Origin: Leucocoprinus leucothites
Taxonomy: Eukaryota > Basidiomycota > Agaricomycetes > Agaricales > Agaricaceae
Length of the DNA: 64,000 nt
Direction: 5' to 3'
Assembly (NCBI GenBank): GCA_013368445.1
Contig: JAACJO010000004.1
Coordinates: forward strand, 1,054,001 to 1,118,000
The notes under the pieces were generated by a model. That model was not told the DNA's origin. It saw nothing but the letters and a program-made list of their open reading frames with translations, and searched no databases. Made by a program: the position numbers and the translations under genes. This document shows, piece after piece, positions 8,111-57,729 of the stretch (position 1 is the stretch's first letter; every line of letters starts with the position of its first letter).

Positions 8111-9335
8111 GTTCCTGCTGTATCATCTTCTTCACATCAGCATAATTATGGTGTGCAAAGCGACGGTGCCAGAGTGAGAGGTCAGCAGGAAGTGTGGAGA
8201 TGCTAAAAGCGGTCTCAGAAGCAATGGTAGTGCCATTGAGGATAGCAGAGTTGGTGGAATCAATGGAGGCAGTGAAGAGAGTCTCTCCCTTGAGTCTAAA
8301 GGCCATAGAGTGCGAAGAAATGGATATATTGAACCCCTTATTTCGTGTGAGGTATAGACAAGACAGGAGATTACTCCGGAGGTCCGGAACATACAGTACA
8401 CATGAAAACTCGACCGCTCCAGCCATTTTTCGGCCCATAACAGGCTGAAAGACCACTAAACCCATCCCAGCTGAATATATGACAGAGTTGTCTGCTAATC
8501 TGATTGGTATGCGACAGGGGGTATATTTCTTGAACCAATGACGGTGTGGGGTCATATGTGACGTAGCACCTGTGTCTGCAATCCAATGGAAGTCAGCATC
8601 GAGCTGGAGGGGTGGGGAAGAGGCTGGGGAAGTGGGGGAAGCAATAGGAGTGGAGGGGGAGCTTGTACCTGCATTTCTAGCGAATTCTGTGACTCTGCTC
8701 GCTTCTCCGGATGCTGGAAGGGCAGGGGAGCCATCAGAGTCCTCCTGGGCCTTGTTGGCACGGTTTCCATGTCGTTTGGACCGGGGGGGAGCATTCTGAG
8801 TGTCCTCTTGGGCCTTGAGATGATCCTTGTCCTTTCTCCAGCATTTGGCCTCTGTATGGCCGGCTTTGTGACACCAGCTACATGGATCGGTCGATTTCGC
8901 CATTTTGAGGCCTCTGGAGGCGGCAGAAAGTGCAGAGGAGGAAGAGGGAAGGTCTATGGCCCTTCTGCGATGTTGGGTGTCCTCAGTGACAAAGGTCTGA
9001 TGCACAGCAGCCTTGTTAAGTTTGTCCTTGAGGAGGAGAGAGGAAATGAAAGAGGAGTACTCCTCAGTGGGCAGGGCTTGGATCTAAAGCCATAGAAGCG
9101 AGCTCCTCATCCAGGCCTTTGAGGTCAAAGTCATCAGAGCAAAGATTTTGGATCTGCTTCATGCTCTCCTCAACCCTGTTGATGAGGGACTGCAGGGACT
9201 CATCCTCAGCCTTCCTGATGTTGAAGAAGTTGTCATAGGCATTAAAACAAGTGCCAGGATGCCTCTGGAGGTGCACAGCTTGCAAATCTGTCCACATCTT
9301 GACAGGATCATCCCTATCAGTGAAGTGAACCCTCA
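8111..9335 (-). pseudogene. Copia gag and protease region
   Basis: The gag part reads HFTDRDDPVKMWTDLQAVHL and LQSLINRVEESMKQIQ (UBN2-like copia gag). A one-base frameshift near 9080-9090 separates it from SSFISSLLLKDK and the rest. The knuckle is CSWCHKAGHTEAKC (CX2CX4HX4C). The protease follows with WIADTGATSHMT, whose D-T-G triad is intact. The gag N-terminus is missing because G1 sequence starts at about 9336. The stretch 7692-9005 is one long open frame, the least damaged part of this element. Confidence 0.85.
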
Positions 9336-9418
9336 TCCCTCCTTGACCTCTTACCACCACTATCTATTCATTGGTGTGAAGTTAGACATCTAGTGTACAC
9401 CGTTCCTACCTATCTAAC

Positions 9419-11316
9419 ATGGGCAGACGTAAATCTAAAGCTATCGCTCGCGAAATCGTGAACATGGACCTCAACTCTGACATCGCGTCCAGTGATGATG
9501 AACTCGACATGATCAAAGAGGCCCCCAGGCCCTCCACCTCTACCCAGCTGGTCCACACAATGGCAGATTTCAAGGCTCTGGCCGCTTCCATGAGGGCTGA
9601 CATTCAGTTGCCCTCACCCCTTCCCTCGGTGCCTACTGACATTCTGTCACTGGCGCCTACTACTCAGCCTCCAGTGACCTTTGGTCCCAAGGCCCCTCTT
9701 GTTGCTGGTGGTACTACGTACTACCCAGTCCCCACTCCTCCCCCGATTGTGCCATCCACCCCATCGTTCTCCACCAGGACCATGCCTGGAGATGATGCCA
9801 TGGCCAAGTGAGCTTTCAACAGCCTCAAGAAGTTCTTGCACTTCATGCGAGAGCTTCCTGATGATTCCCTCCTTGACGAGGATTATGCCAAGGCATGTGC
9901 TAGCTATCTTGCCAGTGCCATCTATGAATTCGAGATGAGCGGGCATGGGAGTGCATGCATTTCCATGGGCAAACAGTGGGCCAGCTGTGGCTGGACCACC
10001 TTTTGCTCCTTCATGCAGGGCTTCACCCAGTTCAATGAGCTGGAAGCCTCCCCTAAAGACACACGCATCGTCCATGAGGCAACCCATGGATCTGCTGACA
10101 AAGTGGAACCACGTGACATTGACATGGGCTCCCCCAAGGTGCCCAAGCAAACGCCCAAGGCCCCGTGGCCTGCCCTGGCCCATCCCCCCATACCACCCAA
10201 GCAAGTGCCCCCTAAGGTGCACGCTAATGGCCTCCCTCGAGCACCCACAAAGGTACCCATCCCCACTTCTGCTCTGGCACCTCGTCAGCACTCGTTTGCA
10301 AAAGCTGCTGGTTCTGGTGCTTCGGCACCACCCATGTCGCTCATCAAGCTGGCACAGGCAAACCCCTCCCTTGACCCTGATCATGTTGCTGCAATGCATC
10401 AGGCTGCCACTGCCACTGCCGGCTCTGCCAAGAAGCTGCACATGACTACCGCCAGGCCCACCTGCTGCCAACTGTTCCTTGATTTCACTGGGGATGCCAG
10501 TGAGATCACCTATCTCCACCACAAGGCCATGCGCCTCCTCAATAACGCCCTCTTGTGTGCAAAGTCTTCCTTGTGCATTGAGAATATCACCAAGGCATAC
10601 AGCACTATCGCGCTGTATACCTCCGCCATACCCTCAGACTCCAACATCACTGTCATTGAGTCTGCTATCCCCTCCATCTTCACTGCCCCATTCCAGCTGA
10701 AGATGTGCCACCCCAGGTCAAGGTCTTATCTTAAAATCCTCGACATCCCCTTCCAGTGAATGGTGTCCGTATTATGCCAGTTCAGATCACCAATTGCATG
10801 TGACTGTCTCCATTCAGGGACACTTTCGCCAACATTTCATCCGTGTGCATTATGTGCAACTCCCCCAAGGCCAACACTGCAACCATTTGGTTTGACCTAT
10901 GGGACTCTCAGTCAGGAGCTGGCGCCAAGAAGCTCCTCAACAAGTACCTTGACTTCAACGGTATGCAGGCCATCATCAAGCCCACCTGTGCCCACCCTGG
11001 TGTCCCTCAGTGCCAGTGCTGCTGATGCTTTGGTCACTCTACCCCCACCTGCCACAACCGTGCACTCAGGTGTTCCCAGTGTGGTGGCCCTCACTGTAGT
11101 GAGAACCATCACTCCACATTGTCGTGCTATAAGGGGAGTCTGAAGGCAAACCCCCCCATCCTGCCCACACCTGCCGGGGAGCCCTGTCCCCACATCTCAT
11201 GTATCAACTGCAAGGGTGACTATGCAGCTGATGATCGAAAGTGCCTGTTCTGGCGCCACCGGTTTGACTGTGATTGGCTCAGCTATCACAAGGAGGACAA
11301 TAGGAGGCCCTGGTAG
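9419..11316 (+). pseudogene. G1 ORF1 (gag-like, three zinc knuckles)
   Basis: Begins MGRRKSKAIAREIVNMDL, passes an acidic/Pro-rich N-terminal region, a helical segment (RELPDDSLLDEDYAKACASY), a Pro-rich linker, then a conserved C-terminal half with KLHMTTARPT, WFDLWDSQSGAGAKKLLNKY and three Cys/His motifs (CQCC-GH-C, CSQCGGPH, CINCKGDY). The protein would bind element RNA. Damage: TGA at 9809, a one-base loss near 10757 (PFQ instead of PFHMNG) and TGA at 11023 in place of Trp. It is homologous to LINE ORF1 in the C-terminal half. No RT follows. Confidence 0.85.
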
Positions 11317-11560
11317 TAGGTCGTGTACCTGCTTCAATGCATCTTCCAACCCCGTTGGTACATCACTAGGGCCACACATGCATGTAAGCTTACTGTTAGA
11401 GGTCTGTGAGTTGGACTTTAGTTTCATTTCTTTGTTACTATGCCACGTCTCTTTGCTGTTGAGTAGTGTACTATATTTGGACAGGACTTTATCTATTTTT
11501 GTCTTTGTAGTATTTGGTTTAGGTAGTGGTACTTAGGCCCTGTATTATGTTGGCAGGCAT

Positions 11561-11578
11561 GGACTGCAACCAGGCACC
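11561..11578 (+). promoter_or_regulatory. Conserved 3' tail hairpin of G1
   Basis: The 18-nt block has the plan GG-AC-TGC-N6-GCA-CC, here with loop AACCAG. TGC pairs with GCA and GG with CC around an AC bulge. The same plan occurs at the 3' end of the LINEs and of the beta retroposons. It is the best candidate for a shared RT recognition element; the function is inferred. Confidence 0.6.
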
Positions 11579-11617
11579 ACATAATAAATCATTGATTTTT
11601 TTAAAAAAAAAAAAAAA

Positions 11618-18868: not shown

Positions 18869-21156
18869 TTTTTTTTAAAAAAAAAAACAAATCAATGATT
18901 TATTATGCGGTGCCCGGTTGCAGTCTGCACTTGCCAACATAATACAGGGCCTAAGTACCGCTACCTAAACCAAATACTACAAAGACAAGAATAGATAAAG
19001 TCCTGTCTGAATATAGTACACTACTCAATGGCAAAGAGATGTGGCATAGTAACAAAGAAATGAAACTAAAGTCCAACTCACAGACCTCTAACAGTAAGCT
19101 TACATGTGTGTGTGGCCCTAGCGATGTACTGACAGGGTTGGAAGATGCATTGAAGCAGGTACATGACCTACTACTAGGGCCTCCTATTGTCCTCCTTGTG
19201 ATGGCTGAGCCAATCATGGTCAAACTGGTGGTGCCAGAATGGGCACTTTTGATCATCAGCTGCATGGTTGCCCTTGCAGTTGATACATGAGATGTGGGGA
19301 CAGGGCTCCCTGGTGGGTGTGGGCAGGATAGGGGGGTTTGTCTTTGGACTCCCCTTACAGCACGACAATGTGGAGTGATGGTTCTCACTATGGTGAGGAC
19401 CACCACACTGGGAACACCTGAGTGCATGGTTGCAACAGGTGGGAGTAGAGTGACCAAAGTGCCAGCAGCACTGGTACTGAGGAACACCGGGGTGGGCACG
19501 GGTGGGCTTGATGACAGCCTGCATACCGTTGAAGTCAAGGTACTTGTTGAGGAGCTTCTTGGCACCAGCTCCTGACTGAGAGTCCCATAGGTCAAACCAG
19601 ATGGTTGCGGTGTTGGCCTTGGGGGAGTTGTGCATAATGTGTATGGATGAAATGTTGGCAAAAGTGTCCTTGAATGGAGACAGTTGCATGTGATCAGTGA
19701 TCTGAACTGGCATAACATGGACGCAGTTCATGTGGAAGGGGACATTGAGGATCTTAAGATAAGACCTTGACCTGGGGTGGCATGTCTTCAGCTCGAACAG
19801 GGCAATGAAGATGGAGGGGATAGCAGACTCAATAACAGTGATGTTGGAGTCTGAGGGTATGGTGGAGGTGTACAGTGCGATAGTGCTGTATGCCTTGGTG
19901 ATATTCTCAATGTGCAAGGAAGACTTTGCATGCGAGAGGGCGTCATTGAGAAGGCACATGGCCTTGTGGTGGAGATAGGTGATCTTACTAGCATCCCCAG
20001 TGAAATCAAGGAACAGTTGGCAGCGGGTGGGCCCAGTGGTGGTCATGCGTGGCTTCTTGGCAGAGCCGGCAGTGGCAGTGGCAGCCTGATGCATCATGGC
20101 GATACAATCAGGGTCAAGGGAGGGGTTTGCCTGTGCCAGCTTGATGAGCGACACAGGCAGCGCTGAAGCGCCAGAATGAGTGGCTTCTGCAAACAAGTGC
20201 TGATGAGGCACTGGAGCAGAGGTGGGGATGGGTGCCTTAATGGGCGCTCGAGGGGGGCCACTAGCGCATGCCTTAGGGGGTGCTTGCTTGGGCAGTACAG
20301 GGGGATGGGCTGGGGCAGGCCGTGGTGCCTTGGGCATTTGCTTGTGCACCTTGGGGGAGCCCATGTCAATGTCACATGGTTCCGCTTTGTCAGCAGATCC
20401 ATGGGTTGCCTCATGGACGACGCATGTGTCTTTAGGGGAGGCTTCCAGCTCATTGAACCAGGTGAAGCCCTGCATGAAGGAGCGAAAGGTGGTCCAGCCA
20501 TGGCTGGCCCACTGTTCACCCATGGAAATGCATGCATTCCTGTGCCCGCTCATCTCAAATTCATAGATGGCACTGGCAAGATAGCTAGCACACACCTTGG
20601 CATAGTCCTCGTCGAGGAGGGAATCATCAGGAAGCTCTTGCACTTCATGCAAGAACTTCTTGAGGCCATTGAAAGCCCACTTGGCCGCGGCATCATCTCC
20701 AGGCACGGTCCCAGTGGAGGACGATGGGGTGGATGGTGCAATCGGGGGAGGAGTGGGGACTGGGTAGTACGTGGTACCACCAGCGACGAGAGGAGCCTTG
20801 GGACCAAAGGTCACCAGAGGCTGAGTAGTAGGCACCAGCAATGGAACATCAGTGGGCACCAAGGGGAGGGGTGAGGGTGACTGAATGTCAGCCCTGATAG
20901 AGGCGGCCAGAGCCTTGAAATCCGCCATTGTGCAGGTCAGCTAGGTGGAGGTGGAGGGCCTTGGGGCCTCTTCAATCATATTGAGCTCGTCATCACCGGA
21001 CACGATGTCAGAGTCAAGGTCCATGTTCACAATCTTGCAACTAATAGCTTTAGACTTTCACCTACCCATGTTTCACTAGTGTAGACAATGTAGTATTGTG
21101 CTCAAACTAAGACACCAACTCAAGAGATGGTGGTGGTAAGAGGACAAGAAGGGATG
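18869..21156 (-). mobile_element. ORF1-only retroposon G2 (alpha), full length
   Basis: A 2288 bp unit bounded by a perfect 15 bp duplication in L0. On the minus strand: 5' end CATCCCTTCTTGTCCTCTTA, ORF1, 3' UTR, tail hairpin (loop AACCGG), ATCATTGATTT and a T/A-run. No ORF2 and no endonuclease or RT sequence lies inside. This is one of the clearest proofs that the ORF1-only unit itself transposed. Confidence 0.92.
19174..21069 (-). pseudogene. G2 ORF1, nearly intact alpha gag
   Basis: A 632-codon frame with no indels. Only two early stops interrupt it (codon 4, MGR-stop-KSKA, and one just before LTCTMADFKAL); the last 584 codons are open. Features: Pro-rich N-terminal third, RELPDDSLLDEDYAKVCASY-type helical region, a second Pro/Ala linker, RSRSYLKILNVPFHMN, IWFDLWDSQSGAGAKKLLNK (about 491-509) and three Cys/His motifs (about 532-609). 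In the first motif the leading Cys is Tyr (PQYQCCWHFGH). It is homologous to LINE ORF1 but clearly diverged. It is predicted to package its own RNA. Confidence 0.9.
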
Positions 21157-22056: not shown

Positions 22057-22076
22057 CATTCTCCTTTCCCTCTAAC

Positions 22077-22102
22077 CGCCATCATCAATTTCTTTGATGG
22101 TG
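22077..22102 (+). promoter_or_regulatory. 5' terminal hairpin of L2
   Basis: CGCCATCA and TGATGGTG can pair over eight positions (one G-T) with a ten-base loop. L5 has the perfect CACCATCA/TGATGGTG version. The ORF1-only units keep a shorter CACCA/TGGTG pair at the same place although the loop differs. Role unknown; an internal promoter or RNA packaging signal is possible. Confidence 0.5.
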
Positions 22103-22830
22103 TCTACATACATATTATGTACAAATACCATTGAAATGATTACACCATCACACTGGGTGGACCTTAAGGGTACCCCATTGCCATTCTTGGACCCAATGAA
22201 CATTGTCAACACTGAAACACATGTCTCGACTAGCAAGTGCAACTGCTCAAAATTGCCTGTACTTTCTATCAAATTGACTAGGCACTCTGTCTATGATGAT
22301 GCCAAGTCTGCTGCCTCATCTAGAGCTGGCTCTAAAGAAGAGGAGAGTGGTGAGAGTAATCCTGATTCATCTAATAACTCAAATCCCCCCTCCCCCATAA
22401 CCATTCCTGTTGTGCTATTGTGTGCAGTATTGCACTCATCCCTCAGAACTTCCCCTCCTCCTTCATTGCATGCCAAGCGAGCTTGTGCTCATGAATCTCG
22501 CTGAGGCCTGGACACCACCCCTAAAGCCATCTCAAGAATGGCATCTATGAGTGCATATGACAGCTTTAAATCACCTATTCCCTTCTGCCCTTTTGGTGAG
22601 GGATTCCTAGGTGAGCTCAAACAACCTGCTCCTTTGAACTTGAACTCTCACAGGGACATGTGGAGTGACCAAGAGGATGGGATACTCAGTAATGGGGTAC
22701 CTACCACTTGGTTCTTTGGACCCCCACCTACCTCAAGGCTGCCTCATGCAATCCATGGATCTGCTGAGTCAGCAAATGCTGTGCTGACCAGCACTCCAGC
22801 TACCTTCTTTGCTAGTTCATCTGATACTAA

Positions 22831-22874
22831 TGACATCACACCTGACATCACACATGATGTCACTGGTGATGTCA
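22831..22874 (+). repeat. 12-nt tandem repeat with TGACATCA cores (L2 ORF1)
   Basis: Four units with cores TGACATCA, TGACATCA, TGATGTCA and TGATGTCA, each with a 4-nt spacer. It is the same array as in L1, L4 and L5. Confidence 0.8.
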
Positions 22875-23570
22875 CTACACAGCTGCAGGAATCTAGGCCT
22901 GCACAGCCACATCTCCTGGATCTTAAGGATCCATCAAACACAGCTACTGAAGAAACTGTGATTGTTGGTGAAGCTGCTTTTAAAGCACTCAAGGCACTCA
23001 AATACATTACTAATTTCTTTAAACACTGCATCGCTCTTAGATTAAGGCCTGGAGTTAAGGACCCGAGGGTTCCCCAAATGGGAGAGCCAATTTATTGTTT
23101 ACTCACTACTATGTTTGAATCAGGCTGGGATCATTTGCCTATTAATAGTGAAAACAGTCTCATGATCATTGAAGTGCTGAGACAATATCTCAGCCCTCCC
23201 ACTGACATCCCCATGACAGACTCTTCCCCCCCCTCCAAAGGGTAAGGGCAAGGGAAGGAAGGCACGTAATCCCTCTCCGTCTTTCATCCCCACCCCTCTA
23301 TTCCCACCTGGTATTTTTGTTGGGCATACTAATTCCACAGCACGCATCAACAATGATAACATGAACATTAACAAAGCCCCTCCCATAGAGGGCACCCTTC
23401 CTCCCCCCAGAATGACCTTTCATCTTCTGGTATAGCACATGACATTTCATCTGTGTCAGGCTCCCAAAAGGCAAAAAATGACATTATGTCTTCTAAGCCT
23501 GCTGGCCCTATCCGTGTCTCCCAGGCTCCCCCTCCACCTTCCAATCACATGACTCCAAGGAATGGGAATG

Positions 23571-23587
23571 GAAATCTCGAGTGCTCA
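23571..23587. repeat. Target-site duplication of G3, left copy
   Basis: GAAATCTCGAGTGCTCA; the right copy at 25836-25852 reads GAAATCTCAAGTGCTCA. It is 17 bp with a single G-to-A difference at a CpG, which arose after insertion. Confidence 0.93.
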
Positions 23588-23671
23588 TCCCTCCTTGACC
23601 TCTTACCACCACCATCAAAAGTTGGTGTTTGATTAGACATCTAGTTTCACATTGTATTCTACCGATTCTAC

Positions 23672-25497
23672 ATGGGTAAACAAAAGTCTAAAGCTAAACA
23701 GGCTGTACACCAAACAACTGAGTCTGCCAACACCTCCAATGATGAGCTCAACATTGCCAAGATGTCCAAGGACAAACATCTTGACCCATACAACAACCCA
23801 TGCAATGTCTGTGGCTTCTCGGGACCTTGGTCCTCCATCCCCCCCCGAGGCTGACCTTGAGTCGCCTCCTTGCCCAGTGCCTGGTGATGTTTCATCCCTC
23901 ACACCTACTACTCAACCTCCGGTGGCTTTGAGCCCTGCAGGTCCCTCCTCTGCCATTCCTAGTGGCTCCATTGCACCCTGGGCTGGCCCCTCTGCTCCCT
24001 CTTCCATTGGACCTGACCTGGAGGAGGAGGCCCTCACCGCCTATGAAGGTCTTTGTCAATTTGGGAGATGGCTCTCAAATCTTGATCCCACTGCCATCAT
24101 GACTGACATGGCCTGATGCTCGTTTGCTCTCTACATCTGTGGGAGCATGTAGGAATTCAGGAAGAGGGGCTGGGCCAATACCCAGCTCACTCCAATGTTT
24201 CAGAAGCAGGGGTGGCCTATGGTTGACTCCTTCCTTCACTCTGGGGGCTTTTTGACTGGCCCTAATCAACCACATGGCAACCACGAGTTGTCCCACAGAT
24301 CTGCTAACAAAGCAGGTCCATGTGACATCAGCATGGGTGACCCCAAAGTTCCCAAACAACCACCTCCAGATCGTTGGCCCGTCCCAGCCTATCCACCTTT
24401 ACTGCCCAAGCAAGTGCCTCCCAAAGCATGCGCTAGTGGCCCTCCTCAAGCTAGGGTTAGGTCTGATGGCCAAGCCCAGCAAGCACCCGCCAAGGTGCCT
24501 CCTCCCTCCACCTTGGTCAAGAAGTCCTTCGCCAAGGCGGCCTGTCAGCTCACTAGGGTTGTGTCACTAATCAAGCTGGTGCAGTCCCACCCCAATCTTG
24601 ATCCGGACCACATCACTGCTATGCATTAGGCTGCCCAAGCCGCCACTCCCGCCACCCAGAAGCCACGTATGACAACTGCGGGCCCCACCCACTGCTAACT
24701 CTTCCTCGACTTCACTGGCAGTGCTGATGAAGTCACCTATCTTCATCACAAGGCCGTGCGCCTTCTCAATGACTCCCTCTCCCACACCAAGTCAATCTTG
24801 TGTGTGGAGAATATCACCAAGGCATACAGCACAATTGTGCTGCACACCTCCTCCATTCCCTCTGACACCGATTGTGATGTCATTGAGGCCTCCATCCCAT
24901 TTGTCTTCTCTGCCCCCTTTGCGATCAAGATGCGCCGCCCCAGGTTGAGGTCCTACCTCAAGGTCCTCGACGTCCCTTACTTTGTGAATGGTGTCCGCAT
25001 CACACTGAATCATGTGACCGACCACATGCAATTGTCTGCCTTCAAGGACATTTTTGCAGATGTTTCCTCCATGTGCATCATATGCAACTCCTCCAGGGCC
25101 AATACTGCCACCATCTGGTTCGACCTCTGGGACTCCCAATCAGGAGCGAGTGCCAAGAAGCTCCTGAGCAAGTACCTCCACTTTGAGGACATTCAGTCTG
25201 TAATCCAGGCTGCACATGCTCACCTAGGCAGTCCTTAGTATCAGTGTTGCTGGCACTGGGGGCATTCTACCTCATCGTACTGAGAACCACCACTCTCACT
25301 CGAGCTGTTGTAAGGGGAGTCCAAAGGCGAATCCTCCCATTCTGCCCACTGCTGCTGGGGATCTCTGTCCCCACATCAAGTGCGTCAACTGCGCCAAGTC
25401 GCATGCAGCTGACAATCACAAGTGCCCATTCTGGCGACACCAGTTTGACTGGCTTTGGCTTAAAAACCATTGCTGTGATGCTGCTTGATCACATCTG
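23672..25497 (+). pseudogene. G3 ORF1 (beta gag)
   Basis: Starts MGKQKSKAKQAVHQTTESAN, then a short acidic/Asn region and GPWSSIP, where extra C in a C-run shifts the frame near 23840. Further on are LEEEALTAYEGLCQFGRWLS, a Pro-rich linker, VEN-ITKAYSTIVLHTSSIP, RLRSYLKVLDVPYFVNGV, IWFDLWDSQSGASAKKLLSK and degraded knuckles. The frame ends near FWRHQFDWLWLKNHCCDAA, with TGA at 25486-25488 replacing the Trp codon seen in G5. It is homologous to alpha gag and to LINE ORF1 from the KPRMTT motif onward. Confidence 0.82.
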
Positions 25498-25757
25498 TAG
25501 GGTTCTCTTCCCTGCAGGTCATATTGTCCACCCCCGCGCTGGGTGTGGTGGGCCCTGGAGATCCATGCCATGCACCTTCCATCCACTGGTGAATCAGAAC
25601 AGCCTGACTTATGTTGTAGTATGCTCTCATTTCGAACTATGTACCACTGCATGAAGATGTCATTTGTACTAGGTGGACTTTGGACTCATATTTATACCTA
25701 GCTATGTAGATGTGTAGTTGGTAGTGGTACTTTCTGCATGTTGTAGTAGTTGGGCAC

Positions 25758-25775
25758 GGACTGCTATCATGCACT
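25758..25775 (+). promoter_or_regulatory. Conserved 3' tail hairpin of G3
   Basis: GGACTGCTATCATGCACT: GG-AC-TGC-N6-GCA-CY with loop TATCAT. It is followed by GCATTATAAATT, matching the TATATAAATT of the LINE tail. Confidence 0.6.
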
Positions 25776-27156
25776 GCATTATAAATTGGCAACCCCTCTG
25801 GGGTCACATTTGAATTAAAAAAAAAAAAAAAAAAAGAAATCTCAAGTGCTCAGTTGGGCACCCTTCTTCTGATAGCCAGGCTTAGCCATCAAAACCTAAC
25901 CCTAAGGGCGCCTCTGAAATGCCACCCCCCATTCCCCCTCCTGACTGTAAGGCATCCACCAAACCCCTTACAGAACACTTCAACAAAAAGAATGTGTCAT
26001 TTGCTGAAGCTGCCCAACGGGGTGTCCAGCCAGTGGCTCCTTCTTCCACTTCTCCTTCTATCAATGGGGTTAAGATGTGAGAAATGATACTCGCCTTCCC
26101 TGAACACTAGTATGACAAAGTCCTTGCTATGTACAAGACAGGTTTTGGTGGTGCCCAACCTCAAGCACCCAAACCTTCGACTTCAAGCACTCAACACACT
26201 AAACCAAAAATGACAATGCATGGGCCCACCCGTTGCCAAGTCCTCATTCCCTTTGAGGGAAACATTATTGCCAACTGCATCAAAGACTTCAATAAAGTGG
26301 CTGAATTTTGTAACCATGGCCTTACTGCTGCCCAATCCAAACTTCGCATCAAATCTGTTCATGAATCATATAACAGAATATCCATTGCCACTTCAGGCAT
26401 CACCACTCCCACTGATCTTGACACCATCAAATCCTGGCTGAAAAAAGCCTGGCAACTCAGAGACACTATCCCCATTGAGCCCTGTCTTCCACAATCCAAA
26501 TCATTCTGTAAAATCATTAGTGTCCCATACTGGGTAGCCAATTTCTCTAACCCTCTCTCCCCTGCTTTCATTGAGCAGGCCCTCGGTCAATCATCCCTCT
26601 TCAAAAATGACATCCTTGCCGCTTGCCCTCGCATCATGAAGGCTTCCCCCAAGTCGGACATAGCTGTCATATGGTTCAATATCTGGGACTCCCAAAATGG
26701 TACTAAGGCCAAGACATTGGTCAACTGTACTATCAACTTTGGCTGACACGTTGGCACCATCCCCACTACTAGTATGTACCCTGGTGTTGTGCAATGCAGG
26801 AACTGTTGGCAGTGGGGCTACCCCACTCATGCATGCCATGCCCTTGGCACTCACTGTCAAATATGTGGTAGTCCTCATTGTGTTGAGAATCATCATTCTA
26901 TGGCCTGGTGTTGCAAGGCCAATCCTAAATCTAACCCCCCTCGTGATGCTACCCCTAAGGGCATCCCATGCCCTCACCTTGAGAACTTTAAATGTCTTAA
27001 CTGCAAAGGTAATCACCATGCTAATGACACTAAATGCCCATTCTGGAGAAACAGGTTTGATTGCACCTGGCACTCTAACAAAGCTGCCAAGTCATGTACT
27101 GCACGTGCTGTCCAGGCCAACACCAATTGCTCCAGTGGCAGAGTTGCTATTTAAAT

Positions 27157-30100
27157 ATGTCTGGTAAGAACAATGTTATTTCTTCTGTTCATATCTATTT
27201 GCAAAACATGGGGTGCTCTTATGCCCTGGTTGATACTATCCTTGAGTCCAAGAAGCTGGACTTCGACATTATTTTTCTATAAGAACCCCTATGGAATCAC
27301 ATCTGCAAGGCACCTTCTATGACTAACCCTGAAGGGAATGATGTTGTAGGTGCCCCTATTCATCCCAAGTGGCTGTGTATGGTTCACCCTACTAAGCCTA
27401 ATGACCCCTGTCCCCATACTTTGACTTATATTTACAGATGTCTACTTCGTATGAGATCCATCCTTCGACAGGATTGGGTCAATCACTACAATATTCAAAT
27501 TCTGGGTTTATTCAACCAGGGTAATTATATTCATTTTCTCAATATATATTCTGACTCATCATCATTGGCAATCACTTTCCTATCAACAAACTTCATTGAC
27601 ATCCCTAATATTGTATATACAGTATGGGAGGTGACTTCAATTGTCACTCTCCAGAATGGGATCCCTTGGCCTCCCATCTCCCTCGCTCTGCCATAACTCT
27701 ATGGAGTTAGTGGATTGTTTCAATCTCACCAGGTCCACACTGACTGTTTTCTCCCCAACCCATTTTTCTTCTATAGAAGAGCATGACAATTCTGTTATCA
27801 ATCTCATCTTTTGCGCTAACGATTCTACCCCCCATGTTATTGATGTGAACTCAAGACTGCCTTTGGACCATGCTCCCTTACTTATTGACCTCCTGATTCA
27901 TCCAGATCATATTAATTATAAAAAATGTGTACTACCAAAGGATAGCGATGAAGAGACCACTTTCATTTCTCAGGTCTCAGAGCATCTAGCAGCTATTGAT
28001 TGTTTGAACATTCACTCCACTTCTTGCTTGGACAATATCTCCGATTCCATCTCCAGTATATTTTCTGATTCATGGAACACAAACTCTGAAACTGTATGGA
28101 TTACTAACCAGTTGAAAGAATGGTGGAATCTCCACTGTTCTGAGACTTTACTTACTTACAGGAGAACCAAGGACCAAAAGGACTGGTGAGTGTTCAGAGC
28201 AGCTACTTGAGCCACCAAACATTCTTTCTTTGACAAGCATATTCATGAGATTGCTTTGACCAACAAATGACCCTGGGACCTCATGGAGTGGGTCAAACAA
28301 TGAAAACTCCCTGCCATTGAGGGTATTCATTATCAAGGTCACCCCTGTAATGACCTTCCAGATTTGTGGAATGCACTCCACTCATCATATAACTCTGCGT
28401 CGGGCCAACCAGTAAGCCCTCATATTCTGAATGAAATGAAAACTCTCCCTCCCTGTTCCTGGGCTGACTTCTCAGCTCTGGAACTCACTGAATCCCTTTT
28501 GTCCTGTGCTAACTCTTCAGCACCTGGACCTGATCATATTTCTTGGAAACACTTAAAGTCTATTGTTGCCCACAACGACTGCCTCAAGAACATCATTCTC
28601 ATTGCTAATGTGTGTGTATGTCTATCTCACTGGCCAAGTCACTTCAAAGACTCAGTCTCTATCATCATTCCCAAGCTGAATAAACTGGCCTATGATACTC
28701 CTAAAGCATTTCATCCTATTGTCCTACTAAACACTTTAGGTAAACTAATTGAAAAGATGATTGCACACCACATGCAATTTGAAGCAGTCTCTTCAGGAGC
28801 TATCCACCCAAATCAAATGGGTGGGGTTATTCAATGCTCCACTGACGATGCAGGTGTTTTCCTTACTCACATCATTTGGACTGGATGGGCCAAAGGTATG
28901 ATCACTAGTGTTTGCACTTTTGACATTGCCCAATTCTTCCCTTCTCTAAATCACAATATTCTCACTGATATCCTACAATGCCAGGGGTTCACCTTAGAAC
29001 TCGTTAATTTCTTTTCCCACTACCTTATAGGACGCTCTACTCAGTTCATGTGGAATACTTTCTTGTTGGATGCCTATAATGCAGATGTTGGTGTTGGGCA
29101 AGGATCTGCACTTTCCCCCATTCTCTCAGTGCTTTATTTAGCACCTCTCATGTTCATGTTCGACCAATGCCCTTGTCTTCAATCTATTCCCTCCTCCCTC
29201 CTATCCTTTGTTGATGATGGGCTTTGTATATCTCAAGCAAAGAACTATACTGATACCATCTCTTCCCTTAAAACAGCATACTCCATCATCACTTCCATCT
29301 GCACTGACCTTGGACTAGTCATCAAACACAACAAATCAGAGGTCTTCCACTTCTCATGTTGACATAATGATAAAAACCCCCCACTTGACTTATCTGACAT
29401 TAGTGGTCCCATCCTCTCTCCAAAATACTTCTGGAGATACCTCAGCTTCTACTTCGATCACCAACTCTTGTTCCAAGAGCACATTCAATACTACTCTACC
29501 AAAGCATTGTCAATAGTGAAAGCTATGGGCATGCTAGGTAACTCAACCCATGGTCTCCTCCCACTTCAAAAGCAACTTCTGTATAGGTCATGTGTTGTCC
29601 CTGTGGCAACATATCACTTTTGCCTGTGGTACTTTGAGGGTGCCCATAACAAGGCACTTCTCAAATACTTATCCTCTATGTAAAGGCACACAGCTCTTTG
29701 GTTCACTGGTGCCTTCCACACTTCTCCATCTGGTGGTGCTGAAAGTATTGCTGGACTCATTCCCATTTACCTTCACCTTTGTAAATTAGCCATTCATTCT
29801 TTGTTTTGAGTTGCTACTTTACCCTCTAATCATGCATTACATTCTCTTCTATCAGATTGTTTCTCTCTTGACTCTTCCCCTCATCCTCAATCACTTTGCC
29901 TTCTCACTCCAGCCAAAAAAGCTAAAGTCAAAGGCCCTATTATTGATGTAGATAGTTCTCTTCCTCTTCTTTCAGATTCCTTCTATCCCTTCGCTCCTGA
30001 ATCCAAGCCTGGGTCTCGTCTCATGCATATCTTTTCTGATTCCATTCATTTTCATCCTTGTAATCATTTGGACAAACATGAAATGTACAATCATGTATCG

Positions 30101-31114
30101 TCTCTCAATGGGGTTTTTTCTTCTTCTTCTTCTGATTGTACTTGTATCTCAGTTGTTACTGATGCTTCTGTTCCTCTTGTAGGTTCCCTTCAGGCAGTTT
30201 TGGCAGCACATTTATATCATGGTGGACAACAAGTGTCCTATGCAAAACAGGCAAGTGGCCGGGCATCTGCAACAGACACTGAACTCTACTCCATTTGCAT
30301 TGGCATCACCAAAGCCATCTCCCTCCAGTGTGATAAAATCATTCTCATCACCGATTGTCTCCCAGCAGCCAAGCTGGCAGTTGACCCTTCTATTCACTCA
30401 AGCCAGACACACTCTATCCATGTCTGCCAACTTCTATCCAACTGGCTTGCAGCCAAACCATCTTGATCCATTGACTTTTGGGATGTCCCATCTAAGTGGC
30501 ATTGGAAGCCCCACCTCAAAGTCCACAATGACATCACTACCACACACATCCACACCCCTCCCCACACAGGTGCTACTCTCAACTTCTTGCAATGCAAAGC
30601 CACCAATGATTGCCAGAAATCCTGGGAGTCTACATTCTGGAAGAAGAAATACTGCAGCAATGGTTTCCTTCTTTCAAAAAAGAATCACAAGTTCCTTATC
30701 CCCACTTATGTCAAGGGAGGCACTTGGCTTCCTCTGGCTAACGAGTCTCCATCATTATGTGCTCACATGACTCAAGCTATCCTAAACCATGCTCCAATTG
30801 GAGCTTATTATGAGAGATTCTTCCCCCTCAAGCCCAATTCCTGTCAGTGTGGCCATCACCTGGAAACATGACACCACATTTTGTGCTATTGCCCACTCTA
30901 TCCCATCTGCACCCAGTGGGTACAATGTGCCTTCCCTCAGTATGAGTTTCTCATCAAATTCTTGAAAAAGAACCTGGCTACTTTTGCCTTCACTAATCAT
31001 GACATGCATCCACTGCCACTTCAAGCTCCTGTGCCTGCCGAACCAAATGAAGGTGAACTATATTCTTTCATCTCCTCTCTTCTCTTCTCTCTCAAGTCCG
31101 ATCTCTGTGTATAA
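27157..31114 (+). pseudogene. L2 ORF2: endonuclease, RT, RNase H
   Basis: Begins MSGKNNVISSVHIYLQNMGC. Compared with L1, L4 and L5 it carries a 5 bp insertion near 27620 (in place of the GGDFN codons) and a one-base loss near 27701, giving 3958 bp instead of 3954. Downstream the frame is readable to DLCV-stop. RT shows FDIAQFFPSLNH, GQGSALSP and SFVDDGLC. RNase H shows VVTDASVP, TDTELYSI and LITDCLP, so all three acids are kept. The Cys/His tail is CQCGHHLET then HHILCYC, interrupted by TGA near 30869. Arg-to-His and Arg-to-Cys changes are frequent. Confidence 0.9.
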
Positions 31115-31315
31115 CACCTCATTTTATAGTCTCTCCCAAGTCTTCTCTATTTCACTGGACTAATCATATATAGTCTTTGTCTTAAGCAGTCTTCAACCAC
31201 TTTGTGTACCCTGGCTTGCCGTAGCATACCATCTGTTTGTATTATTTAGTTGAAAGTGGACTGTGATTGAGCACCACTATATAAATTCATTGATTTAAAA
31301 AAAAAAAAAAAAAGG

Positions 31316-34624: not shown

Positions 34625-34640
34625 TGGCAAGGACTTTGTC
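34625..34640. repeat. Target-site duplication of G4, left copy
   Basis: TGGCAAGGACTTTGTC, 16 bp, repeated exactly at 36927-36942 in L3 ORF1. Confidence 0.93.
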
Positions 34641-36926
34641 TTTTTTTTTTCTAAGTCAAATGTGAGCCCAGAGGGGTTGCCAATTTATAATGTGGTGTGC
34701 GATAGTAGTCCATGCCCAACTACTACAACATGCAGAAAGTACCGCTACCAACTACACATCTACATAGCTAGGTATAAATATGAGTCCGAAGTCTGCCTAG
34801 TACAAATGACATCTTCACACAGTGGTACATAGTTCGAAATGAGAGCATACTACAACACAAGTTGGGCTGTTCTGATTTGCCAGCAGATGGAAGGTGCACG
34901 GCATGGATCTCCAGGGCCCACCACACCCAGTGTGGGGGCAGACAATGCAACCTGCAGGGAAGAGAACCCTACAGATGTGATCGAGCGGCATCACAGCGAT
35001 GGTTTTCAAGCCAAAGCGGGTCAAACTGGTGTTGCCAGAATGGGCAATTGCAATCGTCAGCTGCATGTGACTTGGCACAGTTGATGCACTTGATGTGGGG
35101 ACAGGGATCCCCAGCGGTGGTGGGCAGAATGGGGGGATTCGCCTTTGGACTCCCCTTACAACAGCTCGAGTGAGAGCAGTGGTTCTTGGTACAGTGAGGA
35201 CTGCCACATGCAGCGCATCGCAATGCATGGGCATAGCACAATGAAGTAGAGTGCCCCCAGCACCAGCAATGCTGACACTGTGGACTGCCTGGGTGAGCAC
35301 ATGCAGCCTGGATCATGGACTGAATGCCCTCAAAGTGGAGGTACTTGCCTAGGAGCTTCTTGGCGCTTGCTCCTGATTGAGAGTCCCAAAGGTTGAACCA
35401 GACAGTGGCAGTGTCGGCCCTGGAGGAGTTGTGCATGATGTGCATAGAGGAAACATCTGCAAAAATGTCCTTGAAGGCGGACAATCACATGCAGTCGGTC
35501 ACGTGATTTGGTGTGATGCAGACACCATTCACAAAGTAAGGGACATTGAGGACCTTGAGGTAGGACCTTGACCTGGGGCAGCACGTCTTAATCGCGAAGG
35601 GGGTGGTAAAGATGGAGGGAATGGAGGACTCAATGATGTCACAATTGGCATCAGAGGGAACGGAGGAGGTGTGCAGCACAATTGTGCTGTATGCCTTGGT
35701 GATGTTCTCCACATGCAAGATCGACTTGGCATGGGAGAGGGAGTTGTTGAGAAGGTGCATGGCCTTGTGATGGAGATAGGTGACTTCATCGGCACTGCTG
35801 ACGAAGTCAAGGAAGAGTTGGCAGCGGGTAGGTCCCACAGTTGTCATGTGTGGCTTCCAGGTGGCCGGAGCGGCAGCTTGGGTGGCCTGATGCATAGTGG
35901 TGATGCAGTCAGAGTCGAGATCAGGGTGGGACTGCACCAACTTGATCAGTGACACAACCCCAGCAGGCTGACGGGCTGCCTTGGCAAAAGACTTCTTGAC
36001 TGAGGTGGGGGGAAAGGGCACCTTAGAGGGCGCTCACTGGGCTTGGCCATCAGACCTAACCCTAGCTTGAGGGGGGCCACTAGCGCACGCTTTGGGAGGC
36101 ACTTGCTTGGGCGGTAAGGGTGGATGGGCCGGAGCAGGCTGACAATCCAGGGGCAGTTGTTTGGGCACTTCAGGGTCACCCATGCTGATGTCACATAGAC
36201 TTGCTTTATCAGCGGATCTGTGGGACGACTTGTGGTCGCTGTGTGGTTGATTAGGGCTGGTCGAAAAGCCCCCAGAGTGAAGGAAGGAGTTGACCATAGG
36301 TCACCCCTGCTTCTGAAACATTGGAGTGAGCTAGGTATTGGCCCAGCCCCTCTTCCTGAATTCCCATATGCTCCCAACAACATAGAGAGCAAACAAGCGT
36401 TGGGCTGTGTCAGTCATGACAGCAGTGGGATCAAGATTCGAGAGCCATCTCCTGAATCGACAAAGACCTTCATAGGTGGCGAGGGCTTCCTCCTCCAGGT
36501 CAGGTCCAACAGAGAAGGGAGCAGAGGGGCCAGCCTGGGGTGCGATAGAGCCACTAGGAATGGCAGAGGAGGGACCTGCATGGCTCAAAGCCACCAGAGG
36601 TTGAGTAGTAGGCGTGAGGGACGAAACATCACCAGGCACTGGGTGAGGAGGCAACTCAAAGTCAGCCTCTGGGATTGAGGACCAAGGTCCCGAGAAGCTG
36701 CGGATGTTGTGCAGGTCATCATATGGGTTGAGATGTTCATCCTCGGACATCTTGGCAATGTTGAGCTCATCATCAGAGGCATTGGTGAACTCAGTTGTTT
36801 GGTGTACAGCCTGTTTAGCTTTGGACTTTCATTGACCCATGTAGAATAGGTAGAATACGATGTGTAACTAGATGTCTAATCAAACACCAACTTTCAATGG
36901 TGGTGGTAAGAGGTCAAGGAGGGGTT
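34641..36926 (-). mobile_element. ORF1-only retroposon G4 (beta), full length
   Basis: A 2286 bp unit with a perfect 16 bp duplication in L3. On the minus strand: CTCCTTGACCTCTTACCACC end, ORF1, 3' UTR with the tail hairpin (loop TATCGC), the CCCC hairpin and an A-rich end. It carries no RT or endonuclease. Confidence 0.92.
34969..36840 (-). pseudogene. G4 ORF1, full-length beta gag without indels
   Basis: A 624-codon frame from MGQ to DAARSHL-stop with no indel and five stops (codon 4, after KRGWANT, after MFQKQG, after DGQAQ, after VTDCM), each explained by one transition from Gln, Trp or Arg. Motifs: PDLEEEALATYEGLCRFRRW, SIWEFRKRGW, a Pro-rich linker, LFLDFVSSADEVTYLHHKAM, VWFNLWDSQSGASAKKLLGK, and Cys/His motifs CQHCWCWGHSTSLC, CAACGSPH, CINCAKSHAADDCNC. 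It is a useful reference for the beta protein. Confidence 0.9.
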
Positions 36927-37452
36927 TGGCAAGGACTTTGTCATAAGAGAGTTCAGGGAAGGTTAGTATCATTTCTTGCATCTTAACCCCATCAATGGTG
37001 GGAGAGGTAGAAGAGGAAGTTGCTGGCTGGACACCCTGTTGGGCAGCATCAGCAAACAACACATTCTTCTTGTTAAAGTGTTCTGTAAGGGGTTTGGTGG
37101 ATACCTTACAGTCAGGAGGGGGAATAGGGGGTGGCATGTCAGAGGTGCCCTTGGGGTTAGGTTTAGATGGCTGAGCCTGGCCATCAGATGAAGGGTGTCC
37201 AACTGAGCACTCAAAGTTGCTATTCCTGTTCTTAGGAGTCACATGATTGGAAGATGGAGGGGGAGCCTGGGAGACGTGGATAGGGCTGGCAGGCTTAGAA
37301 GACATAATGTCATTCTTTGCCTTTCAGGAGCCTGACACAGATGAGATGTCATGTGCCTTACCAGAAGACAAGATGTCATTCTGAAGGGGAGGAAGGGTGC
37401 TCTCTCTGGGAGGGGCTTGGTCGACATTCATGGTGTCATTGTTGATATGAGC

Positions 37453-38580: not shown

Positions 38581-40916
38581 CTCCCCCATCCCTTCCTTGT
38601 CCTCTTACCACCACCATCAAAAGTTGGTTGTTGGTTTGAGGCACTTATATGTCATCTATCTACTGTAACATGGGTAGATGTAAGTCTAGAAACACCATGA
38701 ATCAGTTTGCATTGCTTGAAACCAAGTCTGCTGCCATATCCAACGATGAGCTCAACATTGCCGAGATGGCCAACGACGACCACCTCAACCCATATGATGA
38801 TCCCCACAATGTGCACGGGTTCCTTGGTCCTCCCTAGGATGACTTTCAGTCTCCTGGCCCCCTCCTATTGACATCTGGTGATGTTCCATCCCAGGCGCCT
38901 ACTACTCAACCTCTGGTGACTTCTGTCCCTAAGGCCCCCCTCAAGCCCTTCATGGCTGGTGGAACTACATTCTACCCTGTGGAGCAACCCCCCGCGCAGC
39001 CTGCCCCCCCATCAACCTCCTCTAAGGGAAAAAAGAAGACTCCAGCACAAAGAGGCCTTGCTGGATTACAACAGTTCCTCTCCTGGTTGGAGAAGTGTAC
39101 CGACTCTCGCTCCTCCATCACAGAGGAGGATGCTTCTGCAGCTGTCACATGCCTTGCTAAGGCAGCCTGCATCATTGTCAAAGAGCTGGAGCTTGATGGC
39201 GCCCCCATTACCTTGCATTTGCTCAACTCTTGCGGGTTGAATGACTTCAGGGATGTATTGTATGACCTCAGGCTCAAGTGCGGGATGCCTGAGGCTGGCC
39301 CTAAAGCAATGCGCATCATCCACAAGGTGACCCATGGATCCGCTGACTCAGTGGGTCCATGTGACATTGATATGGATTCCTCCAAGGCACCCACCATACT
39401 CCCTCCAGATTGTCGGCCCACCCCAGCCCACCCTCCTCTACTGCCCAAGCAAGTGCCCTCCAAAGTGCATGCTAGTGGCCCCCCCAAGCCCAGTTGCAGC
39501 CCAATGGCCTGGCCCAGTGAGTGCCCACTAAGGCACCTCCTCCCACCACCTCGGTCAAGAAGTCCTTTGCTGAGGTGGCCTGCACCCCCACCAGAGCTGT
39601 GTCGCTGATCAAGCTGCTGCAGTCCTACCCCACTCTTGAGCCTGAGCACATTGCTGCAATGCACCAGGCCGCCCAAGCTGCCACTCCTGCTACCCAGAAG
39701 CTGCACATGACAACCATGGGCCCCATCTGCCACCAACTCTTCCTCGACTTTGTTGGCAGTGCTGATGAAGTCACTTATCTTCATCACAAGGCCATGCACC
39801 TTCTCAACAATCCCTCTCCCGCGCCAAGTCGATCTTGCATGTGGAGAATATCACCAAGGTGTACAGCATGATCATGCTGCACACCTCCTCCGTTCCCTCT
39901 GATGCTGACTGTGATGTCATTGAGTCCTCCATTCCCTCTGTCTTCACTGCTCCCTTCGGGATCAAGACATGCTGCCCCAGGTCAAGGTCCTACCTCAAGG
40001 TCCTCAACGTCCCTTACTTAGTGAATGGTGTCTGCATTACACTGAATCACATGACCGACTGCATGCGATTGTCCACCTTCAAGGACATTTTCACAGATGT
40101 TTGCTCTGTGCACATTATGCACAATTCCTTCAGAGCCGACACTGCCACCATCTGGTTCAACCTCTGGGACTCTCAATCAGGAGCAAGCACCAAGAAGCTC
40201 CTGGGCAAGTACCTCCACTTCAAGGGCATTCAGTCCATGATCTGGGCTGCACATGCTCACCCAGGCAGTCCACAGTGTCAGCATTGCTGGCACTGGGGGC
40301 ATTCTACCCCATCATGCTGCACCCATGTGTTGCGATGTGCTGCTTGTAGCGGTCCTCATCATACTGAGAACCACTGCTCCCACTGGAGCTGTTGCAAGGG
40401 GAGTCCAAAGGCAAATCCCCCCATCCCGCCCACTGCCACTGGGGATCCCTGTTCCCACATCAAGTGCATCAACTGCACTAAGTCACATGCAGCTGACGAT
40501 TGCAAATGCCCATTCTGGCGACACTGGTTTGACTGGCTTTGGCTTAAACGCCATTGTTGTGATGCCGCTTGGTCGCATCTGTAGGGTTCTCTTCCCTGCA
40601 GGTTGTATTGTTCACCCCTGTGCTGTGCATGGTGGGTCCTGGAGGTCCATGCCATGCACTTTCATCTGCCAGCAAATCAGAACAATTTGATTTGTATAGT
40701 ATCTCTCTTTCATCTCAGACTATGTACCACTGCATGAAGATGTTGTATATACTAAGTGGACTTTGGACCCATATTTATACCTAGCTATGTAGATGTGTAG
40801 TTGGTAGCGGTACTTTCTGCATGTTGTAGTAGTTGGGCGCAGACTGCTACCACGCACTGTGTTATAAATTTGGACCCCTTCAGGGTCCACTGATAAAAAA
40901 AAAAAAAAAAAAAAAG
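38581..40916 (+). mobile_element. ORF1-only retroposon G5 (gamma, chimeric)
   Basis: A 2336 bp unit: CATCCCTTCCTTGTCCTCTT end, ORF1 at 38670-40584, 3' UTR, tail hairpin (loop TACCAC), a second perfect hairpin GGACCC-CTTCA-GGGTCC near 40871-40890, and poly(A). The N-terminal gag region is unlike beta and partly alpha-like (MAGGTTFYPV), while the C-terminal half and tail are beta. No ORF2. Confidence 0.88.
38670..40584 (+). pseudogene. G5 ORF1 (gamma gag)
   Basis: Starts MGRCKSRNTMNQFALLETKS, then NDELNIAEMANDDHLNPYDD (beta-like) and, after a stop, PLKPFMAGGTTFYPVEQPPA (alpha-like). A distinct helical segment GLQQFLSWLEKCTDSRSSI follows, then the common half: SYLKVLNVPYLVNGV, IWFNLWDSQSGASTKKLLGK, CQHCWHWGHSTPSC, CAACSGPH, CINCTKSHAADDCKC, ending HCCDAAWSHL. 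Frame changes near 39530 and 39830 break it. The intact terminal WSHL shows where beta/gamma ORF1 normally ends. Confidence 0.83.
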
Positions 40917-41116: not shown

Positions 41117-41576
41117 TTTTTTTTTTTTTTTTTTTTTAATCAGTGGACCCCTCTGGGGTCCAGATTTATAATGCAGTGCATGATAGCAGTCCACACCCAA
41201 CTATCTACAATAGGGAACTGATACTGCTACCAACTATGCAAGAGTAAACAATCAGGAATATATAATAGTCCTGTCCGAGACAATACACGAATCAACAGCA
41301 GAAGGGGGCTAGGCATGTGACAAAATACAAAGAAATGAAACATATACCGATATCAGTACATCTGAAGTGGCAGGCCTTGGGGTTTGTGAGGGCCCACCTG
41401 GCGACTGGCAATAGATGGGGGATGATGTGTTGATACTAGGGAGCTCCCCCTTAGGCCTGGGGCTGACCAGCAGGACCAGAATGACTTTGCAGCCAATTCC
41501 AATCAAACTGATGATGCTAGAACATGCATTTGTGGTCAGTAGCAGCATGTTCCTTGCCACAATTGACACACTTGAT

Positions 41577-41591
41577 GTGGGGACAGGGTTC
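41577..41591. repeat. Target-site duplication of L4, left copy
   Basis: GTGGGGACAGGGTTC, 15 bp, repeated exactly at 48547-48561. Confidence 0.92.
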
Positions 41592-41794
41592 TTTTTTTTT
41601 TTTTTAAAAAAAAAATCAATGAATTTATATAGTGGTGCTTGATCGCAGTCTGCTTTCAACTAAATATTACAAACAGACAGTACACTACAGCAAGCTGGGG
41701 TACACGAAGCGGTCAAAGACTGCTTGAGACAAAGACTATACACAATTAGTCCAGCAACATAGAAGAGACTCAAGAGAGACTATTGAACAAGGTG

Positions 41795-45748: not shown

Positions 45749-45750
45749 AT

Positions 45751-48518: not shown

Positions 48519-48561
48519 TGATGGTGGTAAGAGGGAAAGGAGGATGGTGGGGACAGGGTTC

Positions 48562-50323: not shown

Positions 50324-50410
50324 GTTTCACTAGTGTAGACAATGTAGTATTGTGCTCAAACTAAGACACCAACTCAAGAGATGGTGGTGGTAAGAGGACA
50401 AGAAGGGATG

Positions 50411-57727: not shown

Positions 57728-57729
57728 AT

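What the first reader, a model, noticed from the sequence alone, without database searches (positions are those of the whole stretch)
18869..21156. ORF1-only retroposons (G1-G9): gag-encoding satellites that move as 2.3 kb units
Seen: nine related units in 64 kb, four of them full units of 2248-2336 bp (G2, G3, G4, G5). All have the same 5' end, one gag-like ORF homologous to LINE ORF1, a 3' UTR and poly(A), and no endonuclease, RT or remnant of either. Six have target duplications of 9-17 bp, so the unit itself was inserted by target-primed reverse transcription. They outnumber the six LINE copies. Known parallels: HeT-A (gag only, RT in trans) in Drosophila and HAL1 (ORF1 only) in mammals. 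Inference: an ORF1-encoding satellite of fungal LINEs, possibly undescribed.
Basis: partly seen in the sequence, partly recalled or inferred. Interest (0 to 1): 0.9.

Follow-up and report, generated by a model that had tools for sequence, protein, structure and literature searches.

The report
Mushroom retroposons carrying only ORF1
A mushroom genome carries a large, old family of 2.3-kb jumping elements that encode only an RNA-binding protein and no copying enzyme; their two ends match those of a neighbouring complete LINE element, which probably copies them.

Summary
The host is Leucocoprinus leucothites. G3 (18869-21156, minus) is a complete 2.3-kb unit: one intact 584-aa ORF1, a 3' UTR, a T/A-run tail and an exact 15-bp target duplication. 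Of 62 listed genome places reaching the ORF1 C-terminus, one has a listed endonuclease start within 1 kb downstream, because that unit sits inside a LINE (both lists are capped). In a tree of 75 ORF1 C-termini all 52 G-type rows form one 100/100 clade with three subfamilies. ORF1 is under purifying selection: median dN/dS 0.15-0.31; eight pairs 0.02-0.27 with CpG-context changes removed; neutral simulations 0.26-1.75. New here: the units share about 30 nt at the 5' end and 40-60 nt at the 3' end with the co-resident LINE "L", and both make duplications of about 15 bp. Best reading: ORF1-only retrotransposons that make their own RNA-binding protein and borrow L's ORF2 enzyme. HAL1 and HeT-A are known parallels. 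The fungal case was not found in ten literature searches, but the undefined "HaTad" label in Agaricus bisporus may overlap.

The parts
18869..21156 (-). G3, complete ORF1-only unit, subfamily A
   Evidence: both ends, T/A-run tail, exact 15-bp duplication
19174..20928 (-). ORF1 of G3, 584 aa; predicted tandem RRM-like domains (about residues 292-483), then a Cys/His-rich C-terminus
   Evidence: one search shows the C-terminal residues
18869..18930 (-). 3' end of G3, similar to the 3' end of LINE L
21107..21156 (-). 5' end of G3 (CATCCCTTCTTGTCCTCTTACCACCACCAT...), similar to the 5' end of LINE L
   Evidence: the alignment test used other A, B and C copies
9334..11610 (+). complete ORF1-only unit, subfamily A, ORF1 broken; no duplication seen
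23586..25835 (+). complete ORF1-only unit, subfamily B, inserted in L ORF1 with a 15-bp duplication (1 mismatch)
34640..36927 (-). complete ORF1-only unit, subfamily B, inserted in L ORF1 with a 16-bp duplication
38587..40915 (+). complete ORF1-only unit, subfamily B, 10-bp duplication
48547..50410 (-). 5' 1.86 kb of an A-type unit; L4 lies at its 3' break
41117..41592 (-). C-type 3' end of an ORF1-only unit beyond the 3' end of L4
63030..63701 (-). 5' part of an A-type unit split by a B-like fragment and by LINE L5
60341..61779 (-). middle part of the same A-type unit
53380..53569 (-). 3' part of the same A-type unit, beyond L5
11855..18850 (-). LINE L copy (ORF1, APE-type endonuclease, RT; its last part has no Pfam hit, but relatives carry RNase H), 15-bp duplication; proposed partner
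22057..31313 (+). LINE L copy interrupted by the 23586 unit, 16-bp duplication (1 mismatch)
41592..48544 (-). LINE L copy (L4), 15-bp flanking repeat
53574..60337 (-). LINE L copy (L5) inserted in an A-type unit, 13-bp duplication

Best explanation
The 2.3-kb units are ORF1-only non-LTR retrotransposons. Each RNA encodes one ORF1 protein (two predicted RRM-like domains and a Cys/His-rich, zinc-knuckle-like C-terminus). This protein probably coats mainly the RNA that encoded it, which would explain why the frame is kept under selection. The unit encodes no endonuclease or RT. Its 3' end resembles that of the co-resident LINE L (a short hairpin and an ATAAAT...TTGATT end before the tail), so L's ORF2 protein most likely recognises it, nicks a target and copies it by target-primed reverse transcription, leaving the same duplication of about 15 bp. 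SHOWN: unit structure, duplications, no ORF2 in the places examined, shared ends, single clade, purifying selection. INFERRED: L as the enzyme donor, binding in cis, transcription from the shared 5' end.
For: Of 62 ORF1 places reaching the C-terminus, one has a listed endonuclease start nearby, and it is nested in L. In the tree, 40 of the 41 G-type rows that could be assessed have no endonuclease start within 600 bases downstream; the 41st is the same nested unit. Ten of 10 assessable L rows have one. Target duplications: 13 of 24 units against 1 of 120 controls, 10 of the 13 being 15 bp long; four L copies give 15, 16, 15 and 13 bp. Shared ends of L with A, B and C score 35-39 at the 5' end and 37-64 at the 3' end, above all 300 shuffles in each of seven L comparisons. 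The three 3' ends folded (L, a C copy, a copy with the second hairpin) form the bulged hairpin GCGG-AC-TGC-N6-GCA-CCGC in the minimum-energy structure, with a loop that differs between L and the units. Median dN/dS: AA 0.255, BB 0.305, CC 0.154, AB 0.237, AC 0.173, BC 0.192; eight chosen A and C pairs give 0.02-0.27 with CpG-context changes removed. L copies with long open frames exist on contig C28 (four rows with a 1,329-codon frame without a stop; a 930-codon ORF1 frame in L030).
Against: No RNA or activity data. Eleven of 24 units show no clear duplication. Other, more divergent LINEs are present and their ends were not compared. All 25 sequences of the selection test were without stops in the compared stretch, a biased choice; single raw A pairs reach 0.45, which overlaps the simulated neutral ranges, and no B pair was in the CpG-removed set. 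A rare LINE with a G-type ORF1 plus ORF2 is not excluded: one search scored 75 of 1,230 first-look candidates and one search scored 150 of 321. The hairpin z-scores are modest (-2.1, -1.4, -3.1), the inner three pairs are missing from two of three centroids, and no A-type end was folded. Shuffles keep base composition only.
Confidence: 0.77

Rival explanations
1. The units are occasional deletion products of full LINEs that were counted as a family; they have no life of their own.
For: LINEs do give internally deleted copies (recalled). L035 holds a 0.58-kb derivative of a C-type unit with both ends and an imperfect duplication.
Against: G-type ORF1 is only about 34% (G3) to 42% (a B copy) identical to L ORF1 in the aligned C-terminal part and forms its own clade on a long, fully supported branch. 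Of the rows listed, 20 and 25 span nearly the whole 2.3-kb query. ORF1 is under purifying selection.
Confidence: 0.04
2. A rare autonomous LINE with a G-type ORF1 plus ORF2 (like TAHRE for HeT-A) exists or existed; it is the parent and donor, and L is only a relative.
For: HeT-A has such a relative, TAHRE (PMC5537684, passages). Candidate lists here are incomplete.
Against: None among 62 places or 41 assessable tree rows, the nested unit apart. L shares both ends with the units.
Confidence: 0.13
3. The units are processed retrocopies of a host gene that was domesticated from LINE ORF1.
For: One ORF, an A-rich tail and target duplications fit retrocopies.
Against: They start at a precise 5' end shared with L and end like L. 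There are three subfamilies. I saw no place among those listed that looks like a single-copy parent, but those lists are incomplete and no targeted search for such a gene was made.
Confidence: 0.04

Closest known systems
HAL1 (half-L1) of mammals
   Same: Encodes only ORF1p and is a non-autonomous derivative of a LINE (PMC5753468, passages read).
   Different: HAL1s arose independently several times from L1 (same passages). Here one clade with three subfamilies differs strongly from the partner's ORF1, shares both ends with the partner, and keeps ORF1 under purifying selection. Whether HAL1 ORF1 was under selection was not looked up; the HAL1 paper itself is not held.
HeT-A of Drosophila
   Same: Gag-only non-LTR element; gag conservation suggests negative selection; the RT source is elsewhere and unsettled (PMC5537684, passages read).
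   Different: HeT-A forms head-to-tail arrays at chromosome ends, apparently without nicking (same passages). These units lie in internal clusters, in both orientations, and often have target duplications.
SINE/LINE pairs with stringent 3'-end recognition (for example UnaL2, maize LINE1-1_ZM with ZmSINE2/3)
   Same: The non-autonomous element shares its last about 50 nt and a stem-loop with its LINE (PMC3747384, passages read).
   Different: SINEs are non-coding (recalled); these units encode a selected ORF1.
'HaTad' non-LTR families of Agaricus bisporus
   Same: Four families lie exclusively in the single large repeat cluster of each chromosome (PMC7473861, section 8 read); that this mushroom is also in Agaricaceae is recalled.
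   Different: The text does not define HaTad or say which ORFs the families hold, so identity could not be tested.
MarorLINE-6 of Marasmius oreades
   Same: LINE-type insertions; a family there (from the passages, apparently this one) is not predicted to encode RT and may use that of a related LINE (PMC9674265, passages).
   Different: No protein domains were found in those insertions (same passages).

Membership tests
HAL1-type (ORF1-only derivative of a LINE) | Encodes ORF1 and lacks ORF2 | tested here: met
   1 of 62 places has a listed endonuclease start nearby and it is a nested unit; 40 of 41 assessable rows without, the 41st being the same unit
HAL1-type (ORF1-only derivative of a LINE) | Belongs to the L1 lineage of mammals | tested here: not met
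   Host is a fungus; the best named relatives of L's ORF2 are in Agaricales fungi
HAL1-type (ORF1-only derivative of a LINE) | Close derivation from the co-resident LINE's ORF1 | tested here: not met
   ORF1 about 34-42% identical to L; separate 100/100 clade
HeT-A | Gag-only non-LTR element with selected gag | tested here: met
HeT-A | Head-to-tail arrays at chromosome ends | tested here: not met
   Units in both orientations, 13 of 24 with target duplications; listed places on the longer contigs form internal blocks
SINE/LINE pair of the stringent type | Shares a 3' end and stem-loop with a co-resident LINE | tested here: met
   hairpin support is modest
SINE/LINE pair of the stringent type | Short non-coding body | tested here: not met
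   2.3-kb body with a selected ORF1
SINE/LINE pair of the stringent type | Pol III promoter | not tested
   no promoter search was made
Autonomous APE-type LINE | Endonuclease and RT in the unit | tested here: not met
   L has them
HaTad of Agaricus bisporus | Sequence identity with the submitted library | not testable with these tools
   library not held; name undefined in the text read

The most novel reading that the evidence does not exclude
L and the ORF1-only units form a two-part system. The units are not only satellites: their ORF1 protein also guides or supports L RNPs, for example to the single repeat cluster per chromosome, as HeT-A Gag does for TART at telomeres, so that the centromere-like clusters are built jointly by both elements.
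Probability: 0.1. Interest if true: 0.85.

Novelty: new variant of a known kind. Interest (0 to 1): 0.62.

Why it matters
Protein-coding satellites of LINEs seem rare in print (HAL1, HeT-A). A large, diversified clade whose ORF1 has stayed under selection without its own enzyme would show that an ORF1 protein alone is worth keeping for an element that borrows RT. It makes two open questions directly testable in a fungus: does ORF1p act in cis on its own RNA, and does the LINE enzyme choose templates by their 3' end? The clusters also suggest a link to centromere-like repeat blocks in mushrooms.

Tried and rejected
Known ribozyme at the 5' end: Rfam search of L042, L033 and L030 at E up to 5 gave one weak snoRNA match and no ribozyme. 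Pfam gave no domain for the ORF1s of G3 or L at E up to 0.1. A PDB sequence search with a C-type ORF1 gave 0 matches. Homologues in other fungi: searches with the G3 and a B-type ORF1 each returned one protein, P0001, from the same species; about 8,000 candidates sharing most words were scored each time, so absence elsewhere is not shown. Cyclocybe proteins P0036 and P0037 end in an ORF1-like part but fall outside the G clade. The term 'HaTad' first matched the surname Hatada; a whole-word search with 'retrotransposon' found one paper. The idea that G units are always the upstream half of L (they often abut L's 5' end in the window) was dropped: flanking repeats show independent, nested insertions. 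No paper describing ORF1-only LINE satellites in fungi was seen in the listings of the ten literature searches, which cover only open PMC papers and of which I saw the top rows.

Full report
SETTING. The window is C4:1,054,001-1,118,000 of a 47.0-Mb, 110-contig assembly. LINE proteins of Leucocoprinus leucothites lie on contigs of 471,282 and 2,858,510 bases, the lengths of C28 and C4 here, so the host is this Agaricaceae mushroom.

OBSERVATION. G3 is a complete unit at 18869-21156 (-) with an intact 584-aa ORF1. The flanks carry an exact 15-bp repeat. Five uninterrupted units, two interrupted ones and fragments lie in the window. Duplications of 10-16 bp are visible for 5 of the 7 units with both ends. 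L and the units are nested in each other: units at 23586 and 34640 sit in L ORF1 with duplicated L sequence, and L5 sits in an A-type unit with duplicated unit sequence.

GENOME-WIDE. A DNA search with G3 gave 89 rows (40 of 513 candidates scored); 20 of them, G3 included, span nearly the whole query (from base 23 or earlier to 2284 or later) at 82-100% identity. A second subfamily (B) gave 99 rows (40 of 539 candidates scored); 25 of them, the query itself included, run from base 26 or earlier to 2264 or later. A protein search with ORF1 gave 79 rows from 75 of 1,230 candidates. I compared 78 of these rows (one 24-aa row left out) with 150 places of the L endonuclease start (150 of 321 candidates scored). 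Of the 62 rows that reach the ORF1 C-terminus, one has an endonuclease start within 1 kb downstream on the same strand, at 408 bases. This is L025, where the unit lies between L ORF1 residues about 484 and 481 and is flanked by the repeat GGACCTGGCACTCTA. So, within these capped lists, no place shows an ORF2 of its own; more divergent endonucleases were not in this comparison. Of ten further G-type 5' ends taken as a sample, all ten run into an ORF1 N-terminus; three (L041, L042, L044) have both ends at about 2.26 kb, one (L035) is a 0.58-kb deleted form, and the rest are truncated, interrupted or irregular. The G-type 5' pattern occurs 337 times and the L-type 112 times, controls 0. Recall of the two patterns differs (5 of 7 and 2 of 6 in the window), so the ratio is not reliable.

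CLADE. From window and loci I took 67 ORF1 C-terminal stretches. Two with more than 3 stops were dropped and 10 outside proteins added, giving 75 rows. All 52 G-type rows lie on one side of a 100/100 branch of length 0.58. They fall into A (24 rows), B (12) and C (16); the B-plus-C grouping is weaker (94/71). In this clade 40 rows have room downstream and no endonuclease start within 600 bases, 11 could not be judged, and 1 is the nested L025. Ten of 12 L rows have the endonuclease and 2 could not be judged. One divergent LINE (L020) also has it. The tool warned of long branches among the outside rows and that the bootstrap had not settled.

SELECTION. Pairwise dN/dS medians over 25 sequences without stops in the compared stretch are AA 0.255, BB 0.305, CC 0.154, AB 0.237, AC 0.173, BC 0.192, LL 0.088; single pairs within A reach 0.45. 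Between-subfamily dS is about 1.0-1.2. Simulated neutral change on four of these sequences gives 0.56-1.75 (uniform), 0.40-1.27 (transition-biased) and 0.26-1.52 (CpG decay only). Eight chosen A and C pairs with CpG-context changes removed give 0.02, 0.11, 0.27, 0.11, 0.08, 0.10, 0.10 and 0.11. The frame has therefore most likely been used during the spread of the clade. The choice of stop-free copies is a bias in favour of this result.

ENDS. L and the units start alike (L: CATCCTCCTTTCCCTCTAACCACCATCATCGA; C: CATCCCTCCTTGTCCTCTTACCACCACCATCGA) and end alike (L: GCGGACTGCGATCGAGCACCGCTATATAAATTCATTGATTT; C copy L041: GCGGACTGCTATCGCGCACCGCGTTATAAATTCATTGATTT). Local alignment scores are 35-39 at the 5' end and 37-64 at the 3' end; none of 300 shuffles reaches them in any of the seven L comparisons. 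The 3' sequence folds as a bulged hairpin in the three sequences folded, with different 6-nt loops in L and the units. B copies and most C copies carry a second hairpin (such as ACCCCTCCGGGGT) before the tail. Shared 3' ends with a stem-loop are the mark of stringent SINE/LINE pairs (PMC3747384, passages). Target duplications are 15, 16, 15 and 13 bp for four L copies, and 15 bp in 10 of the 13 units with a clear one, which fits one shared machinery. Eleven of the 24 units have none that scores 9 or more; several copies outside those 24, whose ends did not fit the strict pattern, do show repeats by eye (L010, L011, L017, L022, L025, L027, L028).

MECHANISM. Shown: bounded units, duplications, no ORF2 in the places examined, shared ends, one clade, selection. 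Inferred: L ORF2 acts in trans on the shared 3' end; ORF1p binds its own RNA. A frame under selection in an element without RT means that its protein helps the RNA that encodes it; conservation of HeT-A gag is read in a similar way (PMC5537684, passages).

CLUSTERS. On the longer contigs with known length, the ORF1 and endonuclease places listed fall in one block each, for example 130 kb of 3.76 Mb on C1, 159 kb of 3.15 Mb on C2, 225 kb of 2.86 Mb on C4 and 145 kb of 2.82 Mb on C5 (lists are capped, and some 5'-pattern places extend these blocks somewhat). Agaricus bisporus has one large repeat cluster of 110-280 kb per chromosome, likely the centromere, with four HaTad-type non-LTR families found only there (PMC7473861, section 8).

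NOVELTY. ORF1-only elements are known as HAL1 and HeT-A. A fungal, diversified, selected ORF1-only clade sharing its ends with a LINE was not seen in ten literature searches of open papers, which is a limited test. 'HaTad' could prove to be the same thing. Hence 'new variant of a known kind'.

CHANGE AT CHECKING. Confidence in the best explanation was lowered from 0.78 to 0.77, and the TAHRE-like rival raised from 0.12 to 0.13, because the capped lists had been stated too widely.

Noticed in passing
C1, C2, C4, C5, C6, C8, C13 of the genome (places): The listed places of L and of the ORF1-only units fall in one block of about 84-225 kb per long contig, like the putative centromeric repeat clusters of Agaricus bisporus.
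   Followed up: partly
contig C28, 73-341 kb: Copies here look less decayed than elsewhere: four LINE RT rows lie in 1,329-codon frames without stops and several ORF1-only frames have no stop.
   Followed up: partly
window 48547-50410 and 41117-41592: L4 has an A-type unit on its 5' side and a C-type unit on its 3' side, with the same 15 bp at both junctions; the switch of subfamily coincides with the LINE insertion. Unexplained.
   Followed up: partly
L041 2297-2340 and L042 2301-2362: C-type units carry two alternative 3' ends: one with a second hairpin and one with the L-type end, suggesting exchange of ends between families.
   Followed up: partly
L035 64-640: A 0.58-kb internally deleted derivative with both ends of a C-type unit and an imperfect duplication, SINE-like in size.
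   Followed up: no
L009 about 3001: The 5' end of an A-type unit abuts the 5' end of an L copy head to head with no clear duplication.
   Followed up: no
L015 5801-6112, L020 1467-2252, L019 1761-2522, window 31839-32579: Pieces of other, more divergent LINE families (35-49% to L ORF2) exist; their ends were not compared with the units.
   Followed up: no
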